Source of the DNA: Eubacterium sp.
Lineage (GTDB): Bacteria; Bacillota; Clostridia; Lachnospirales; Lachnospiraceae
Assembly (NCBI GenBank): GCA_017965495.1
Contig: JAGCPW010000034.1
Span: 1 to 49,700 of the forward strand
Direction of reading: 5' to 3'
DNA: 49,700 nucleotides
Made by a program: the position numbers and the translations under genes. Under the pieces are notes generated by a model. That model had not been told where the DNA came from and did no database searches. It saw only the letters and a program-made list of their open reading frames with translations. Of this stretch, positions 34,836 to 41,301 are shown piece by piece (the first letter of the stretch is position 1; each line of letters begins with the position of its first letter).

Positions 34836-36431
34836 ATGATTTGTCCTAATTGTGGAAAAGAATGTACAGAAGATGAATATTTTTGTCGTAAATGCGGTAC
34901 AAAAGTAGGCAATTTTCAGTTCGTTTCAAACAATGAAGAAAAAGTTCAAGATGATTACTCGGAGACGAGTGGTTTTAATAATATTGTCGGAGGAATTCCT
35001 GAAAAGGAAATGCCAGAAGATGACCTAGGAAAGACGATTGACACTAGTCACATTTTGGATAACGAAGAAGTGACAGCTAGTTTTAAAGACCCAAGTAAAG
35101 AAAAACCTATTGAACTAGGTTCTGTGGATGATGACTTTGGAATGATTGACGATGATGATCAAGATGCAGGAAAGAACTATGAATCATCAAGCGTGGAGGG
35201 TGTTAAGCCTGAAAAGAAAAAGAAGACTAAGCTCATTGTCATTTGCGTGCTTGCGGCTGTTCTTGTGGCTATACTTGGAACTATAGGCGTTATTTATGCT
35301 ACAAAAACATCTAAGTTTAATAAGTTCTACAGTGCTGGTACTGTGCTTTATAATCAAAAGAATTATTCTGATGCTAGAACTCAGTACATTCAAGCTGCTA
35401 GTAATGCATTCACATCAGGACAAAAGATTAAAGCATACAAAATGGTTTATGCCACAGATGAGATGTTAGGTGGTTACGACAAAGAAGAAATTGCTTACAT
35501 GGAAGCATTAGTGGATTTGGACGATGATAATATTGAGTTTTACAAAAACTTGATAATTCTATATCAGAACAATGGACTTGATTCAAAGATTGGTGAATTG
35601 ATTTCATCAGCACCAAAGGATATACAAGATAAACTAAAAGACTTTGACGGAACTATTCCTACGGTTAACTATCCAGAAGGTAAGTATGCAAAGCCATTAG
35701 AAATAGAACTTTCAGCTACTGATGGTGTAAAGATTTACTATACACTTGATGGATCAAAAGTAGAGGATAGTCAAACACGTAAAGAGTATAAGAAACCATT
35801 CATGCTAAGCGATGAAGGTCAGTACAATTTGCGTGCTGCATCTAAGTCAAAGAACGGCAAATTTAGTAAAGAGTTCCAAGGCAAATATGAATTAGATTTT
35901 GGTAGTGTAAAAGAGCCAAGTGTGAATCTAGATAGTGGAAAGTATACTGAACAAAAGAAAATCAAGGTTACTTGCGATCCAGGTTGTACTATATACTATA
36001 CAAAAGATGGAACTACACCTACAGAAAAGTCAAAGAAATATAAGAAAGCTATAAAGATGCCTAAGGGTACTAGCTTATATTACTTTGTGGCGGTTAATAA
36101 AGATGGAATATCTAGTGGTGTGATAACAAGAGCCTATGATTACTCTCCAGACTTTAGTTTTAGTTATGATGAGGCTTTAAATGCTTTATCGTCTAACTTA
36201 GTTTCGAATAATATATTTGAGAGTAAAGATGGAACATTTAAAAATAAAAATATTGGATATTTAAATTATAAATCTGTTGAAGAGATGGATGGCGCATTCT
36301 ATTACGTAATTCAAGTTGAGATATGTGATAAGAATGGCAAGACTAAATCCACATCGTATTACGGAGTATCTACAGATTCTGGACATGTAGAAAAGGTTAA
36401 TAGGTCCGGAGGCAAGTATTCGATTGAATAA
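34836..36431 (+). CDS. Zinc-ribbon membrane protein with chitobiase-type C-terminal repeats
   Basis: A 531-residue protein that crosses the membrane once. A zinc ribbon lies at the N-terminus (C3, C6, C17, C20 in CPNCGKECTEDEYFCRKCG). An acidic, probably disordered linker follows (residues 30-120). The membrane helix is about residues 131-152 (LIVICVLAAVLVAILGTIG). The outer part starts with a TPR-like helical region (YNQKNYSDARTQYIQAAS). Then come two beta domains of the chitobiase C-terminal type (GVKIYYTLDGSKVEDSQT, and GCTIYYTKDGTTPTEKSKKY), and a final domain I do not recognise. Such proteins are common and uncharacterised in clostridia; an envelope sensing or scaffold role is a guess. 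Zinc inside and sugar-binding-like repeats outside is consistent with signalling. Confidence 0.82.
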   Translation: MICPNCGKECTEDEYFCRKCGTKVGNFQFVSNNEEKVQDDYSETSGFNNIVGGIPEKEMPEDDLGKTIDTSHILDNEEVTASFKDPSKEKPIELGSVDDDFGMIDDDDQDAGKNYESSSVEGVKPEKKKKTKLIVICVLAAVLVAILGTIGVIYATKTSKFNKFYSAGTVLYNQKNYSDARTQYIQAASNAFTSGQKIKAYKMVYATDEMLGGYDKEEIAYMEALVDLDDDNIEFYKNLIILYQNNGLDSKIGELISSAPKDIQDKLKDFDGTIPTVNYPEGKYAKPLEIELSATDGVKIYYTLDGSKVEDSQTRKEYKKPFMLSDEGQYNLRAASKSKNGKFSKEFQGKYELDFGSVKEPSVNLDSGKYTEQKKIKVTCDPGCTIYYTKDGTTPTEKSKKYKKAIKMPKGTSLYYFVAVNKDGISSGVITRAYDYSPDFSFSYDEALNALSSNLVSNNIFESKDGTFKNKNIGYLNYKSVEEMDGAFYYVIQVEICDKNGKTKSTSYYGVSTDSGHVEKVNRSGGKYSIE

Positions 36432-36435
36432 GATT

Positions 36436-36464
36436 AAAATGACGGGTTTTTACCCGTCATTTTT
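36436..36464 (+). terminator. Terminator of the zinc-ribbon protein gene
   Basis: AAAATGACGGGT (36436-36447) with ACCCGTCATTTT (36452-36463), loop TTTT, then a T-run. Confidence 0.9.
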
Positions 36465-36468
36465 GTAT

Positions 36469-36498
36469 AAAAAAAGCTCCTATTTCTAGGAGCTTTTT
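36469..36498. terminator. Terminator of tRNA-Leu (minus strand)
   Basis: AAAAAGCTCCTA (36471-36482) with TAGGAGCTTTTT (36487-36498), loop TTTC. Read on the - strand it begins two bases after the tRNA end and is followed by seven Ts. Confidence 0.9.
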
Positions 36499-36499
36499 G

Positions 36500-36583
36500 T
36501 GCAGGTGGAGGGACTTGAACCCTCATGCCCCGAAGGGCGCTGGATTTTGAATCCAGTGCGTCTGCCAATTCCGCCACACCTGC
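36500..36583 (-). tRNA. tRNA-Leu (anticodon CAA)
   Basis: A class II tRNA of about 84 nt. The acceptor stem is GCAGGTG / CACCTGC. The anticodon stem CTGGA / TCCAG encloses the loop TTCAAAA, giving anticodon CAA (bases 36549..36547), which reads the Leu codon UUG. A long variable arm (CGCCCTTCGGGGCA) and the T loop (GGTTCAAGTCC) are present. CCA is not encoded; after the discriminator the genome reads CA then an A-run. It is transcribed from a near-consensus promoter. Confidence 0.95.
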
Positions 36584-36594
36584 CAGCGAGATAA

Positions 36595-36623
36595 ATTCTA
36601 TCATTTTACGAGTATGTTGTCAA
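36595..36623 (-). promoter_or_regulatory. tRNA-Leu promoter
   Basis: On the - strand a perfect TTGACA (36623..36618), 17 bases, then TAGAAT (36600..36595). This is the strongest housekeeping promoter in the window. Confidence 0.9.
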
Positions 36624-36636
36624 ATATGTTTTATAT

Positions 36637-36666
36637 GCCGTATTTTCTTTAAAATACGGCTTTTTT
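36637..36666 (+). terminator. Terminator-like hairpin with no obvious upstream + strand gene
   Basis: GCCGTATTTT (36637-36646) with AAAATACGGC (36651-36660), loop CTTT, then six Ts. It is oriented for the + strand, but upstream on that strand lie only the previous terminators and the antisense of tRNA-Leu. The 316-base gap 36432-36747 otherwise holds the two terminators, the tRNA and its promoter. Confidence 0.75.
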
Positions 36667-36747: not shown

Positions 36748-38616
36748 ATGAAATTTAGCGTATCAGGAATGGGCTGCGCAGCGTGTGTAAACAGGGTGGA
36801 AAATGCAGTCAAAAATGTTGATGGTGTTACATCTGTAGATGTAAGTCTTCTTACCAATTCTATGGAGGTAGAAGGCAGTTTTTCTAATGCAGATGTTATC
36901 CAGGCAGTAAAAGATGCGGGTTATAAAGCTGATTATCTAGAAGAAGGTAAAAGCATTATTACAGAAGAAAAACACCAGATGTCAAAAGAGACTAAAACTA
37001 TTCTTATTAAGCTTATTGTTTCAATATGTTTGCTAGTTCCTTTAATGGTTGTCTCTATGGGCAACATGTTTTTAAAAGTAACGGACAATTACGTTTTGAT
37101 AGTTGCGATTGAAATAATTTTATCTTTTGCAATTATCTTGATTAACTATAAATATTTCGTTAACGGTTTTAAATCTATTATCCATATGTTTGGAACAATG
37201 GATTTGCTAGTGGCTTTAGGATCTGGAATTACATTTATTTATTCAACTGTAATTGCTATAAAAATTTTCAAAGACCCAAGTCAAGGCGAGCATATGATTC
37301 ACAGTATTTATTTTGAATCAGCCGCTATGATTTTAGTTTTTATAACACTTGGAAAGTTCTTGGAATCTTACGCCAAAGGAAGAACCACTGGCACTATTAA
37401 AGAACTAATCCATCTTGCTCCAAAGACTGCCATTATAGAAGTTAATGGAGAGCAAAAAGAAGTATCTATAACAGAGATTAAGACAGGTGATATTTTCATA
37501 GTTGAACCTGGTAAGAATATTCCAGTAGACGGAGTGATTGTTCATGGCTTAAGTAAAGTGGATGAATCTATGCTTACAGGAGAGTCTGAATTTGTAAATA
37601 AACAGATTGATTCTAAAGTTTATGCTGGAACTAAAAATCACGAGAGACTTATTAAGTGTAGGGCTACAGAAGTAGGTACAGATACTACGCTTGCTAAGAT
37701 TATAGATATGGTAAGCAAAGCTTCGTCATCTAAAGCGCCTATTGCAAGAATTGCAGATAAAGTGGCATCAGTATTTGTTCCAGTCATTTTAGGAATTGCA
37801 GTTATTACATTTATTGTTTGGATGATAGTTTCTAAAGATTTTGAGCAGGCATTAAACTTCGCATTATCTGTAATTGTTATTTCTTGCCCTTGTGCATTAG
37901 GACTTGCTACACCAGTTGCCATTATGGTTGGAAATGGAGTGGCTGCTAGTGTAGGAGCATTATTTAAAAATGCAACAGCACTTGAGATGTCAGGTAAGGC
38001 TAAAAATATTATGCTTGATAAAACTGGAACTATCACTAAAGGTGATGCGCTTTCTGATGTTATAAGAGAAGACAGTGCACAAGCTATCAAAGAATTCAAA
38101 GATATGAATTTATCTGTAACTATGTTATCCGGCGACAAAGAAGAAACAGCCAAATTCTTTGCCGAAGAAGCTGGAGTGGATGATTATGTATCTGAGATGA
38201 AAGCAGATCAAAAAGAAACTGAAGTGGCGAAGAGACTAGATAGCGGAGTAACTGTGATGGTGGGCGATGGTATCAATGATGCACCAGCACTTACAAGAGC
38301 AGATGTGGGAGTAGCCATAGGTTCTGGTACAGATGTGGCAATTGAGTCTGCAGATGTAGTTATAGTTAATGACTCGCTAATGACAGTTTCAAAAGCAATT
38401 AAGATTAGTAAGTTAGTAATTAAAAATATAAAACAGAATTTATTCTGGGCATTTATTTACAATATCATTTGTATTCCAGTGGCAGCTGGAGTTTTCTTCC
38501 AAGCATTTGGCTGGAAACTTACTCCGATGATCGGAGCCTTATGTATGAGTGTATCAAGTGTGTTTGTGATTCTAAATGCTTTAAGACTAAATCTTTTAAA
38601 GAAAAGGTATAAGTAA
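36748..38616 (+). CDS. copA: Copper-type P1B ATPase lacking the nucleotide-binding domain
   Basis: By family this is a Cu+ exporter. Present: one heavy-metal domain with GMGCAAC (residues 7-13), membrane helices, the actuator TGES (277-280), the membrane metal site CPC (380-382), the phosphorylation site DKTGT (Asp424), the hinge GDGINDAP (506-513) and the final helices. Absent: about 110-130 residues between DKTGTITKG (424-432) and the following ALSDVIREDSAQAIKEF (434-450). In full-length CopA this interval is the N-domain with the SEHP motif that binds ATP; here the two flanks are joined in frame. Total length is 622 residues, against roughly 740-800 usual. It may be non-pumping, or a distinct form. 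polA starts on the next base after its stop. Confidence 0.88.
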   Translation: MKFSVSGMGCAACVNRVENAVKNVDGVTSVDVSLLTNSMEVEGSFSNADVIQAVKDAGYKADYLEEGKSIITEEKHQMSKETKTILIKLIVSICLLVPLMVVSMGNMFLKVTDNYVLIVAIEIILSFAIILINYKYFVNGFKSIIHMFGTMDLLVALGSGITFIYSTVIAIKIFKDPSQGEHMIHSIYFESAAMILVFITLGKFLESYAKGRTTGTIKELIHLAPKTAIIEVNGEQKEVSITEIKTGDIFIVEPGKNIPVDGVIVHGLSKVDESMLTGESEFVNKQIDSKVYAGTKNHERLIKCRATEVGTDTTLAKIIDMVSKASSSKAPIARIADKVASVFVPVILGIAVITFIVWMIVSKDFEQALNFALSVIVISCPCALGLATPVAIMVGNGVAASVGALFKNATALEMSGKAKNIMLDKTGTITKGDALSDVIREDSAQAIKEFKDMNLSVTMLSGDKEETAKFFAEEAGVDDYVSEMKADQKETEVAKRLDSGVTVMVGDGINDAPALTRADVGVAIGSGTDVAIESADVVIVNDSLMTVSKAIKISKLVIKNIKQNLFWAFIYNIICIPVAAGVFFQAFGWKLTPMIGALCMSVSSVFVILNALRLNLLKKRYK

Positions 38617-41301
38617 ATGAAAAAGTTAGTATTGATTGACGGACATAGTATTTTGAACAGGGCTTTTTATGGAGTACCTGTATTTACCAATTCAAAAGGA
38701 GTTCACACTAATGCAGTGTATGGATTCCTTAATATTATGTTTAAAATTATTGAACTTCAGAATCCAGATTATTTTGCAGTGGCTTTTGATGTTCATGCTC
38801 CGACATTTAGACATAAGATGTTTGACGATTACAAGGGCACTAGAAAACCTATGCTTCCAGAGTTAAAGGAGCAAGTTCCTTTGATTAAAGAATTGCTTGG
38901 AAAGATGGATATTAAAACTTTGGAACTTGAAGGTTACGAGGCTGATGATATTTTAGGAACAATGGCTGGCCGTGGTGAGAAAGAAGGCTTAGAAGTATCT
39001 GTTATTTCAGGAGATAGAGACTTACTTCAACTAGCTACAGACAAAGTTCAAATTTGTATTCCAAAAACTTCAAAGGGTCAAACTACCGTTGAATATTACA
39101 ATGCAGATGCTGTTAAAGAAAAGTATCATGTTACACCTGCAGAGTTTATTGATGTAAAAGCTTTGATGGGTGATTCATCTGATAATATTCCTGGAGTTCC
39201 TGGTATTGGTGAAAAGGGAGCTACCAATATTATTTCTGAGTTTGGTTCAATTGAAAATGCAAAAGATCACGCAGAAGAAATATCTAACACAAGAAATAAA
39301 AATGCATTTATTGAAAATTATGAACTTGCAGTTCTAAGTAAAGAACTTGCCACTATTGATACTGATTGTCCGGTTGATGCTAAAGTATCAGAGTGTGAGT
39401 TTGGAGATATCTACACCAAAGAAGCTCTTGATATGGTGAAAGAACTCGAGATGAAGAGTATGATATCTCGTTTTGAGAATGTGGATAGCGCTAATGATTT
39501 TGAAGAGAACTTCCAAGTAGTTAGCGATGCTAAAGAGATAGATAAACTTTTTAGCGAGGCAAAGAAGGCAGATAAGATTGGTCTATTTATTTATGAGACA
39601 GATAAGTTAGAAGGACTAGGACTTTGCTTTGGAGATGAGGCATATTATATTAAAACATCTGCAGCTAAGTCAGATGAGAGTTTGGATGATATTTATTCTA
39701 GATTCACTGGTGAAGCAGAAGAATCATCTGAAAGTGATATAAAAACAAAAATCAAAGAACTAGTTCAAACTAAGAAACTAGTTAACAACGATGTTAAGAA
39801 ATATAATAAATATTTAGAAGCAACAAAAGATGATGAAGTGTTTGATGCATCTCTTGCAGCATACCTTCTAAATCCTTTGGCTAACTCTTATGAGTACGAT
39901 GATATAGCAAAGGATTATCTTGGATTATTGCTTCCTGCAGAGGAAGAGATTTTCCCTAAGACCAAGAAGGATGAAACTCCAAGTAGAGAGATAGAAGACA
40001 ATGTTAAGCGTTTTGTTTGTATGAATGCTTATGTTTTATACAACGCAAAAGATAAGTTAGAAGAAGCTTTAAAAGATACTGAGATGTATGATGTTTACAA
40101 AGATATTGAAGTTCCTTTGTCTTTTGCGCTTTATGATATGGAACAAGTTGGCATTCATGTGGATGGAGATGCGCTAAAAGAATACAGCAAAACTCTGCAG
40201 AGTAAGATTTCTGAAATGGAAAAAGAGATTTATGAAGAGGCTGGACATGAGTTTAACATTAACTCGCCTAAACAGCTCGGTGGAATCCTGTTTGGTGAGA
40301 TGGAACTTCCAGGTGGAAAGAAAACTAAGACTGGTTATTCCACATCGGCACAGGTTCTAGAAAAGTTAGAACCAGACTATCCATTTGTTAGAAAGATTTT
40401 AGATTATAGACAATTAACAAAACTAAACAGCACTTATGCTGAAGGTTTGCAAAATTATATAAGTGAAGACGGAAGAATTCATGGAACATTTAATCAGACT
40501 GTAACGGCTACAGGTAGAATTAGTTCAACAGATCCTAACCTTCAAAACATACCTGTTCGTATGGAAATGGGAAGAGAAATTAGAAAAGTATTTGTACCAA
40601 AGGATGGTTGTGTGTTTGTGGATGCAGACTATTCACAAATTGAACTTAGAATCCTAGCAAGTATATCTGATGATAAAAACTTGATTGATGCTTATAAGAA
40701 TTCAAAAGATATTCACGCATCCACAGCTGCACTAGTTTTTGGTGTGAAAGAAGATGAAGTGACTCCGCTCCAAAGAAGAAATGCTAAAGCAGTTAACTTT
40801 GGAATCGTTTATGGTATTAGTTCGTTTGGACTTAGCCAAGATTTATCAATTAGTAAAAAGGAAGCACAGCAATATATAGAAGATTACTTCAAGAGTTATC
40901 CTGGAGTTAAAAAATATCTGGATGAGTCTGTTGAGTTTGCAAAAGAAAATGGATATGCACTCACACTTTATAATAGACGTCGTCCTATACCTGAACTTAA
41001 AGCTGGAAACTTTATTCAGAAACAATTTGGCGAGCGCGCTGCTATGAATTCACCAATTCAAGGTACGGCTGCAGACATTATGAAAATTGCAATGAATAAA
41101 GTGGCTGCAGAGATTAAGGAAAAAGACTTAAAGTCAAAGATTGTTCTTCAGATTCATGATGAGCTTTTGATTGAGGCTTATGAAGATGAAGTGGAAGTAG
41201 TAAAAGAATTGCTTAAGAGAAATATGGAAGAGGCAGCATCACTTAAAGTTCCGTTGGATGTGGATGTAAACACAGGCACTAACTGGAACGATGCGCACTA
41301 A
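38617..41301 (+). CDS. polA: DNA polymerase I
   Basis: Fills gaps and removes primers during replication and repair. The 894 residues have three parts. The 5'-3' exonuclease is at the start (VLIDGHSILNRAFYG, GYEADDILGTMA, MGDSSDNIPGVPGIGEKGA). The middle domain corresponds to the proofreading exonuclease, but the first catalytic motif (DTE) reads IYE in LFIYETDKLEG, so proofreading is probably lost, as in Bst-type enzymes. The polymerase domain carries motifs A (DADYSQIELRIL, about 669), B (RRNAKAVNFGIVYG, about 720) and C (QIHDELLIEA, about 845). It begins with no gap after the copper ATPase, using AAAGG as Shine-Dalgarno, and coaE follows nine bases after it. Confidence 0.97.
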   Translation: MKKLVLIDGHSILNRAFYGVPVFTNSKGVHTNAVYGFLNIMFKIIELQNPDYFAVAFDVHAPTFRHKMFDDYKGTRKPMLPELKEQVPLIKELLGKMDIKTLELEGYEADDILGTMAGRGEKEGLEVSVISGDRDLLQLATDKVQICIPKTSKGQTTVEYYNADAVKEKYHVTPAEFIDVKALMGDSSDNIPGVPGIGEKGATNIISEFGSIENAKDHAEEISNTRNKNAFIENYELAVLSKELATIDTDCPVDAKVSECEFGDIYTKEALDMVKELEMKSMISRFENVDSANDFEENFQVVSDAKEIDKLFSEAKKADKIGLFIYETDKLEGLGLCFGDEAYYIKTSAAKSDESLDDIYSRFTGEAEESSESDIKTKIKELVQTKKLVNNDVKKYNKYLEATKDDEVFDASLAAYLLNPLANSYEYDDIAKDYLGLLLPAEEEIFPKTKKDETPSREIEDNVKRFVCMNAYVLYNAKDKLEEALKDTEMYDVYKDIEVPLSFALYDMEQVGIHVDGDALKEYSKTLQSKISEMEKEIYEEAGHEFNINSPKQLGGILFGEMELPGGKKTKTGYSTSAQVLEKLEPDYPFVRKILDYRQLTKLNSTYAEGLQNYISEDGRIHGTFNQTVTATGRISSTDPNLQNIPVRMEMGREIRKVFVPKDGCVFVDADYSQIELRILASISDDKNLIDAYKNSKDIHASTAALVFGVKEDEVTPLQRRNAKAVNFGIVYGISSFGLSQDLSISKKEAQQYIEDYFKSYPGVKKYLDESVEFAKENGYALTLYNRRRPIPELKAGNFIQKQFGERAAMNSPIQGTAADIMKIAMNKVAAEIKEKDLKSKIVLQIHDELLIEAYEDEVEVVKELLKRNMEEAASLKVPLDVDVNTGTNWNDAH

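What the first reader, a model, noticed from the sequence alone, without database searches (positions are those of the whole stretch)
38014..38060. P1B copper ATPase with its nucleotide-binding domain missing in frame
The protein keeps the metal-binding domain, actuator (TGES), CPC, DKTGT, GDGINDAP and all membrane parts, but DKTGTITKG is joined directly to ALSDVIREDSAQAI. In known CopA proteins more than 100 residues lie between these, forming the N-domain with the SEHP motif that binds ATP. The reading frame is intact and the flanking motifs are well kept, so this is not simple decay. It may be a recent in-frame deletion, a non-pumping copper sensor or buffer, or a family that takes its nucleotide site from another protein. 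It sits at the head of an operon with polA.
Basis: partly seen in the sequence, partly recalled or inferred. Interest (0 to 1): 0.75.

Follow-up and report, generated by a model that had tools for sequence, protein, structure and literature searches.

The report
Copper pumps without ATP-binding domain
This copper-pump protein has lost the whole domain that normally grips its fuel, ATP, yet natural selection still preserves its catalytic parts, and the same loss has happened several times in other bacteria, many of them from animal guts, usually with the same change in the active site, which suggests pumps that run in an undescribed way.

Summary
The window's P1B-1 copper ATPase homologue (36748-38616 +, 622 aa) lacks the whole N domain (about 115 residues, with SEHP) in frame. 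It is no assembly error: 6 of 23 genomes of the genus, window included, carry the same form (dN/dS 0.04-0.10), at the copA-polA locus where full-length CopA lies in 11 of 13 congeners. The domain was lost in place and the gene stays constrained. A pattern scan of one genome per species (84,980) found 34 N-less loci in four phyla by record title, zinc-type pumps among them. Trees reject a single origin (AU p about 1e-6; at least 6 changes on supported branches). N-less proteins share a remodelled motif II, SGD[K/R] for TGDN (Ser 41/42 against 1/67; basic 38/42 against 4/67), and keep every catalytic Asp, Lys and Glu examined. No clear stand-alone N domain was found in 19 N-less genomes, with a profile of limited sensitivity. 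Best reading: still a phosphorylation-driven metal exporter whose P domain takes phosphate without an N domain, perhaps from acetyl phosphate; pumping and donor are unproven. Nine searches of open-access papers listed no such protein.

The parts
36748..38616 (+). N-domain-less P1B-1 (CopA-like) gene, 622 aa
36754..36927 (+). HMA metal-binding domain with GMGCAAC (aa 3-60)
   Evidence: PF00403, E 2.8e-16
37576..37587 (+). TGES of the actuator domain (aa 277-280); Gly and Glu kept in 42 of 42 N-less rows
37885..37893 (+). CPC of the transport site (aa 380-382)
38017..38031 (+). DKTGT phosphorylation motif (aa 424-428)
38041..38046 (+). Junction G432/D433 where about 115 codons of the N domain are absent compared with full-length CopA of the genus
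38128..38139 (+). SGDK, remodelled HAD motif II (aa 461-464; TGDN in 48 of 67 full-length rows)
38212..38214 (+). Lys489, HAD motif III lysine (label recalled), kept in 42 of 42 N-less rows
38263..38280 (+). GDGIND, HAD motif IV (aa 506-511)
38458..38463 (+). YN (aa 571-572), Cu(I)-site signature of the second-last transmembrane region (label recalled)
38545..38559 (+). MSVSS (aa 600-604), Cu(I)-site signature of the last transmembrane region (label recalled)

Best explanation
The protein descends from an ordinary CopA (P1B-1 Cu(I) ATPase) at the copA-polA locus. Its whole ATP-binding N domain was removed in frame in the ancestor of a subclade of the genus (genomes of 1.4-1.7 Mb), and it now works without it. 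It most likely remains a phosphorylation-driven Cu(I) exporter. Asp424 is phosphorylated, the actuator loop with Glu279 drives dephosphorylation, and CPC with the YN and MxxSS residues carries copper. The phosphoryl donor no longer needs an adenine-binding domain: the open, cap-less P domain takes phosphate directly, either from a small high-energy donor such as acetyl phosphate or from ATP held only by its phosphates. The changed motif II (SGD-K/R) helps to hold that donor. Shown by calls: loss in place, purifying selection, retained catalytic and metal residues, repeated independent loss, parallel change of motif II, metal-gene neighbours at some N-less loci elsewhere (none in the window's clade), no clear separate N domain. 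Inferred: that it turns over, that it pumps, and what the donor is.
For: Residues: D424, T426, T428, G462, D463, K489, D507, N510, D511, G278, E279, C380 and P381 are invariant in 42 of 42 N-less rows; C382 in 41 of 42. The global search pattern forced DKTGT, GD and GDG[IV]ND, but not E279, K489, CPC or the residues flanking GD. dN/dS is 0.04-0.10 over the gene, 0.03-0.11 in the P domain and 0.01-0.05 in the A domain, in 5 of the 15 possible pairs (highest sub-region values 0.17 in HMA and 0.135 in the P core). The N domain was lost at least 6 times on starred branches (10 changes on the best tree), and one clade is rejected with AU p 1.0e-6, or 2.4e-6 with zinc-type and divergent rows left out. 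Ser at motif II follows the loss in 5.8 of 6 independent pairs and Lys/Arg in 4.7 of 6. Columns 461, 466 and 464 best separate 16 N-less groups, which I drew by hand from the tree, from 67 full-length rows. 20 of 31 N-less genomes show no full-length CopA-like match, nor do 9 of 9 in the Prevotella family sample of 81. 13 of 43 loci have an HMA, ArsR or cation-efflux gene within one ORF. No clear stand-alone N domain.
Against: No biochemistry exists. Acetate kinase is present in 44 of 45 N-less genomes but also in 58 of 60 genomes of the window's own kin (52 of 54 without the six N-less ones), so its presence does not favour acetyl phosphate. PTA matches are absent from 3 of 45 genomes and below the cut-off in 1 more. 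The sign test for Lys/Arg has median p 0.0625, and column 466 is not significant. Four of 42 N-less rows lack the basic residue (SGDT, SGDV, SGDN, SGDQ), and four full-length rows have one (L038 SGDK; L039, L086, L087 TGDR); Lys at this place also occurs, by recall, in P4 flippases. N-less clades sit on long branches, which may mean relaxed constraint at some time and which the tree program flags as a source of false joins. 11 of 31 N-less genomes also hold a full-length CopA. One of the 34 loci (L049) has an in-frame TGA upstream of DKTGT, so at least one copy may be decaying. The window's own clade has no metal-gene neighbour.
Confidence: 0.5

Rival explanations
1. It no longer pumps: it is a copper-gated facilitator, sensor or buffer, and the P and A domains are kept for structural or regulatory reasons, for instance phosphorylation from inorganic phosphate that needs no N domain.
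For: The canonical ATP site is gone; in 11 of 31 genomes a full-length CopA is also present; long stem branches.
Against: Catalytic Asp, Lys and Glu residues that matter for phosphoryl transfer are invariant in 42 of 42 rows, with dN/dS of 0.01-0.11 in the A and P domains. Motif II is remodelled in parallel rather than eroded. In 20 of 31 genomes no full-length CopA-like match was seen; in two of these (G070, G077) the N-less copy is not clearly copper-type.
Confidence: 0.27
2. ATP remains the fuel, but with the N domain or a substitute supplied in trans by another protein.
For: P-type ATPases are expected to need ATP held by an N domain (family knowledge). The N-domain profile is not fully sensitive: it missed the N domain of a full-length zinc-type ORF in G078.
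Against: The profile found nothing in G000 and, in 19 N-less genomes searched of 45, only N domains inside zinc-type P1B ORFs of 593-756 aa, plus a 223-aa P-type fragment in G084 and a marginal match (E 0.028) in G075; G061, G065, G074, G078, G087 and G090 gave none. Apart from HMA proteins, no neighbour family was shared by more than three loci outside the window's genus.
Confidence: 0.06
3. The phosphoryl donor is a phosphoprotein, as for cap-less HAD enzymes that act on macromolecules.
For: Loss of the cap-like N domain leaves an open C0-type HAD active site (general HAD knowledge, recalled).
Against: No conserved partner gene next to the N-less genes was seen. Not tested otherwise.
Confidence: 0.08
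4. Assembly error, pseudogene or chance deletion without meaning.
For: The window's own genome is a 97-contig draft, and many relatives are MAGs. L049 is interrupted by a TGA.
Against: Same junction in 6 separate assemblies, strong purifying selection, and 34 loci in the species collection, 31 of them outside the window's genus, three with record titles that read as isolates (Prevotella sp. P5-50, Prevotella sp. tc2-28, Geosporobacter subterraneus DSM 17957).
Confidence: 0.02

Closest known systems
CopA, P1B-1 Cu(I)-transporting ATPase (NCBIfam TIGR01511; solved relatives 3rfu, 3j09, 7si3)
   Same: HMA domain, TGES, CPC, DKTGT, GDGINDAP, YN and MxxSS; nested among CopA sequences of its own genus and in the same copA-polA location
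   Different: No N domain, no SEHP; motif II SGDK instead of TGDN; no adenine-binding site
ZntA/CadA-type P1B-2 Zn/Cd ATPases (subtype label recalled)
   Same: Four N-less rows (L047, L057, L066, L072) have K and D in place of the Cu(I) residues; L047 and L057 follow an ArsR regulator
   Different: Different metal-site residues; separate losses on the tree
Cap-less (C0) HAD phosphatases and phosphotransferases (recalled)
   Same: HAD domain with four motifs and an open active site
   Different: Here fused to a membrane transporter with an actuator domain

Membership tests
P-type ATPase superfamily | DKTGT phosphorylation motif and HAD motifs II-IV | tested here: met
   motif II is SGDK rather than TGDN
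P-type ATPase superfamily | Actuator domain with TGE | tested here: met
P-type ATPase superfamily | Nucleotide-binding (N) domain between DKTGT and the rest of the P domain | tested here: not met
   spacing 82 aa against 194-215
P1B ATPase | SEHP and glycine motifs of the N domain | tested here: not met
P1B-1 Cu(I) ATPase | CPC, YN and MxxSS metal-site residues | tested here: met
P1B-1 Cu(I) ATPase | Descent from CopA | tested here: met
   careful tree: set of 9 genus CopA and 6 N-less rows at 98/96; polA downstream in 6 of 6 N-less and 11 of 13 full-length loci of the genus
P1B-1 Cu(I) ATPase | Eight transmembrane helices | tested here: inconclusive
P1B-1 Cu(I) ATPase | ATP-driven Cu(I) export | not testable with these tools
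   needs biochemistry
Two-component pump with an N domain in trans | Separate N-domain protein in the genome | tested here: not met
   19 of 45 N-less genomes; limited by profile sensitivity and draft genomes

The most novel reading that the evidence does not exclude
These are P-type metal pumps that have left ATP behind: the P domain is charged directly by acetyl phosphate (or another small acyl phosphate), so gut anaerobes export copper and zinc with a fermentation intermediate. SGD-K/R is the mark of this fuel switch and arose repeatedly when the N domain was discarded.
Probability: 0.25. Interest if true: 0.95.

Novelty: new variant of a known kind. Interest (0 to 1): 0.8.

Why it matters
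The N domain is the part that makes a P-type ATPase an ATPase. Its repeated loss, with the catalytic core under strong selection in the clade tested and the same active-site change in most lineages, means either that the N domain is dispensable for pumping or that these transporters use another energy source. Either answer would alter the textbook definition of the family. The proteins are small, some come from organisms whose record titles read as isolates, and one short motif (SGDK against TGDN) makes the question directly testable.

Tried and rejected
Assembly error or pseudogene: rejected for the window's clade. Single origin of all N-less pumps: rejected by AU tests; in the 43-row tree, the window clade with five other N-less rows is rejected (p 0.00027), with L091 and L092 alone it is borderline (p 0.0505). 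N domain in trans: not found in 19 of 45 N-less genomes; the profile missed one N domain known to be there (G078). Acetate kinase or phosphotransacetylase as a marker: not discriminating (44 of 45 and 42 of 45 N-less genomes, 41 over the cut-off for the latter; controls 9 and 10 of 14; acetate kinase 58 of 60 in the window's kin, six of them N-less). Linkage to acyl-phosphate genes: acetate- or butyrate-kinase-like or PTA/PTB-like genes lie on the same contig as an N-less or N-short pump in G086, G069, G067 and G075, kilobases away; treated as coincidence, not tested statistically. Large compensating insertion within the core (from the first transmembrane part to 90 columns before the alignment end): none of 15 aa or more in 41 of 42 rows, one of 15 aa in L047. 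Structure model: not available. The spacing gap (nothing between 96 and 187 aa in 146 ORFs) is not absolute: a zinc-type ORF in G075 has 109 aa.

Literature: nine searches, five of them worded for a missing N domain, listed no N-domain-less P-type ATPase. Long lists were shown only in part (20 of 2,681, 10 of 171). Of one review (PMC10654040) I saw only the passages found by term search, of all others only listings. Subscription papers and preprints are not held.

Rows dropped: the 109-row set left out duplicates of the same gene, ORFs under 480 aa (L073; L049 was too short to enter) and L095 with spacing 243 aa. The Cu-only test left out 11 rows: zinc-type, two divergent N-less rows (L110, L149) and the long-branch full-length L133. 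dN/dS was computed for 5 of 15 pairs. The global scan read only GAT for the phosphorylated Asp and two 30-base gap ranges, so 34 is a lower bound. Only 8 neighbour proteins plus one window protein were scanned with Pfam.

Full report
What is there. The ORF at 36748-38616 (+) encodes 622 aa. It has an HMA domain (aa 3-60), an actuator region with TGES, CPC at aa 380-382, DKTGT at 424-428, SGDK at 461-464, GDGIND at 506-511, and the Cu(I)-type YN and MSVSS residues. Pfam sees only profile positions 97-191 of the Hydrolase model after the E1-E2 domain. From DKTGT to GDGIND there are 82 residues, against 194-215 in the 23 full-length CopA proteins L014-L036; about 115 codons, the whole N domain with SEHP, are absent.

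It is real and shared. In the genus (23 genomes held, the window's included) 6 carry a complete 622-aa N-less copA with the same junction, the five others 82-90% identical to the window; 1 carries a fragment (77%) whose contig ends before the junction, 13 carry full-length CopA, and 3 gave no CopA match. Pairwise dN/dS in 5 of 15 pairs is 0.04-0.10 over the gene, 0.03-0.11 in the P domain and 0.01-0.05 in the A domain; dS is near or above 1 in four of the five pairs, so those ratios are rough.

It was lost in place. polA follows copA in 6 of 6 N-less loci and in 11 of 13 full-length loci of the genus; in the other two (G015, G017) the fetched flank is only about 300 bases. In a careful tree of 43 rows, built without the N-domain, motif II and HMA columns, the N-less clade (100/100) lies among 12 of the 13 full-length CopA rows of the genus (99/96; 98/96 for the closest set of 15 rows), on a long stem of 1.48 changes per column. 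The thirteenth genus row, L036, is long-branched and falls outside, but holding all together is not rejected (AU p 0.285).

It is not alone. A degenerate pattern for DKTGT, GD and GDG[IV]ND at N-less spacing, with the Asp codon fixed as GAT, gave 34 stretches in the collection of one genome per species (84,980 species); 3 of them are from the window's genus. In all 34 the frame runs open from DKTGT to GDG[IV]ND with a spacing of 73-93 aa; one (L049) has an in-frame TGA upstream, and several are cut by the ends of the fetched stretch. Record titles name Lachnospiraceae, Oscillospiraceae/Ruminococcaceae, Mogibacterium, Acidaminococcaceae, Phascolarctobacterium, Geosporobacter, Prevotella, Muribaculaceae, Coriobacteriia, Candidatus Ancillula, another actinomycete and Verrucomicrobia. 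Eleven of 34 titles name an animal or a gut site outright; seven more do so if 'Lapin' and 'RUG' mean rabbit and rumen genome, as I recall. In a sample of 81 genomes from the family of one Prevotella, 9 (that one included) have an N-less CopA and 37 a full-length one, with no overlap in the listed matches. Of the 31 genomes behind the global loci outside the genus, 20 show no full-length CopA-like match and 11 do; these are drafts. In two of the 20 (G070, G077) the N-less copy is not clearly copper-type. Among the 11, the N-less copy is a short HMA-less form, a zinc-type form or a divergent one.

It arose repeatedly. In a 109-row tree (42 N-less, 67 full-length; N-domain, motif II and HMA columns left out) the N-less state needs 10 changes, at least 6 of them forced by branches with SH-aLRT of 95 or more. 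Holding all N-less rows together is rejected (AU p 1.0e-6), also with zinc-type and divergent rows left out (8 changes, p 2.4e-6). The program warns that several N-less rows have long branches whose joins may be false. Of the 42 N-less rows 35 have the full Cu(I) residues, 4 are zinc-type (L047, L057, L066, L072), 1 is cut before them, and 2 are divergent. One genome (G075) has an N-less CopA and also a zinc-type pump with a shortened N region (spacing 109, TGDR).

The same active-site change goes with it. At motif II, Ser replaces Thr in 41 of 42 N-less rows (1 of 67 full-length), and the residue after SGD is Lys or Arg in 38 of 42 (4 of 67). When 16 N-less groups, drawn by hand from the tree, are compared with the full-length rows over the well-filled columns, the three most distinct are 461 (S in 15 groups), 466 (E in 11) and 464 (K or R in 13). 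On starred branches, Ser follows the loss in 5.8 of 6 independent pairs (median p 0.031), Lys/Arg in 4.7 of 6 (median p 0.0625), and acidic 466 in 3.6 of 6 (median p 0.25). The motif II columns were not used to build the tree, and the residues beside GD were not required by the search pattern.

Context. Of 43 N-less loci whose neighbouring ORFs were listed (some with short flanks), 10 have an adjacent ORF in one BLAST cluster of HMA proteins: six small CopZ-like ones just upstream (L071, L075, L142, L143, L146, L148) and four with HMA plus DsbD_2 just downstream (L059, L065, L068, L073). Two zinc-type genes follow an ArsR regulator (L047, L057), L077 has a cation-efflux gene upstream, and three Prevotella loci share an AraC-type gene two ORFs upstream (Pfam was run on four members of the HMA cluster and one of the AraC cluster only). 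The other shared neighbours are the copA-polA surroundings of the window's genus and clusters of two or three loci, one of them, an aminotransferase by its look, spanning Prevotella and Lachnospiraceae. The window's clade has no metal-gene neighbour. An N-domain profile, run on 19 of the 45 N-less genomes and one full-length control, found no clear stand-alone N domain: hits lie in zinc-type ORFs, apart from a 223-aa P-type fragment in G084 and a marginal hit in G075. It missed the N domain of a full-length zinc-type ORF in G078, so it is not fully sensitive. G000 gave none; its own zinc-type gene is cut by a contig end.

How it probably works. The residues for phosphorylation (D424, K489, D507), for holding phosphate (motif II) and for dephosphorylation (E279) are invariant or conservatively changed in 42 of 42 rows, and the metal site is kept in most. 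This argues for a working phosphorylation cycle. Known P-type pumps can be phosphorylated by acetyl phosphate and by Pi without using the adenine site (general knowledge, not from a call). A cap-less P domain with a new basic residue next to motif II is what one would expect for a small or loosely held phosphoryl donor. Acetyl phosphate is the most economical guess for fermenting anaerobes, but acetate kinase is as common in the window's kin (58 of 60 genomes, 52 of 54 without the six N-less ones) as in N-less genomes (44 of 45), so the genomes do not decide it. Pumping itself is inferred.

Known or not. Nine searches of the open-access library listed no report of P-type ATPases without an N domain (some lists shown in part). 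Passages of a 2023 review found by term search do not mention such a form (PMC10654040). This does not cover subscription papers or preprints. I file the protein as a derived variant of P1B-1 ATPases: the defining N domain was tested for and is not there, so it cannot be called an ordinary member.

Noticed in passing
L161:863-2740 (G075:C25): Second P1B pump of a genome that already has an N-less CopA: zinc-type by its look, follows an ORF that looks ArsR-like (not scanned), DKTGT to GDGIND 109 aa with a short linker and no SEHP, motif TGDR.
   Followed up: partly
L056, L059, L061, L065, L068, L073: Short HMA-less N-less pumps (about 550 aa where complete) in Oscillospiraceae/Ruminococcaceae and Mogibacterium. 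Their genomes also hold a full-length CopA, and four of the loci are followed by an HMA protein of the DsbD_2 cluster.
   Followed up: partly
L049 (G062:C109): N-less short pump interrupted by an in-frame TGA upstream of DKTGT; possible decay or sequence error. Not mended.
   Followed up: no
L162:10914-12806 (Geosporobacter subterraneus): Very divergent N-less P-type protein with CPK in place of CPC, one 117-aa ORF away from a 1059-aa full-length P-type ATPase ORF.
   Followed up: no
L038 (G009:C12): A full-length zinc-type P1B that keeps its N domain but has SGDK at motif II; a possible intermediate or control.
   Followed up: no
window 38614-38620: The copA stop codon is directly followed by the polA start codon. 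The copA-polA order is kept in the genus whether or not copA has its N domain, which may mean translational coupling.
   Followed up: partly
window 36436-36660: tRNA-Leu (caa) on the minus strand (36499-36583) between two terminator-like hairpins; the one at 36637-36660 ends about 90 bases before copA.
   Followed up: no
window 34836-36431: Upstream protein with an N-terminal zinc ribbon and chitobiase C-terminal / Fn3-associated domains.
   Followed up: no
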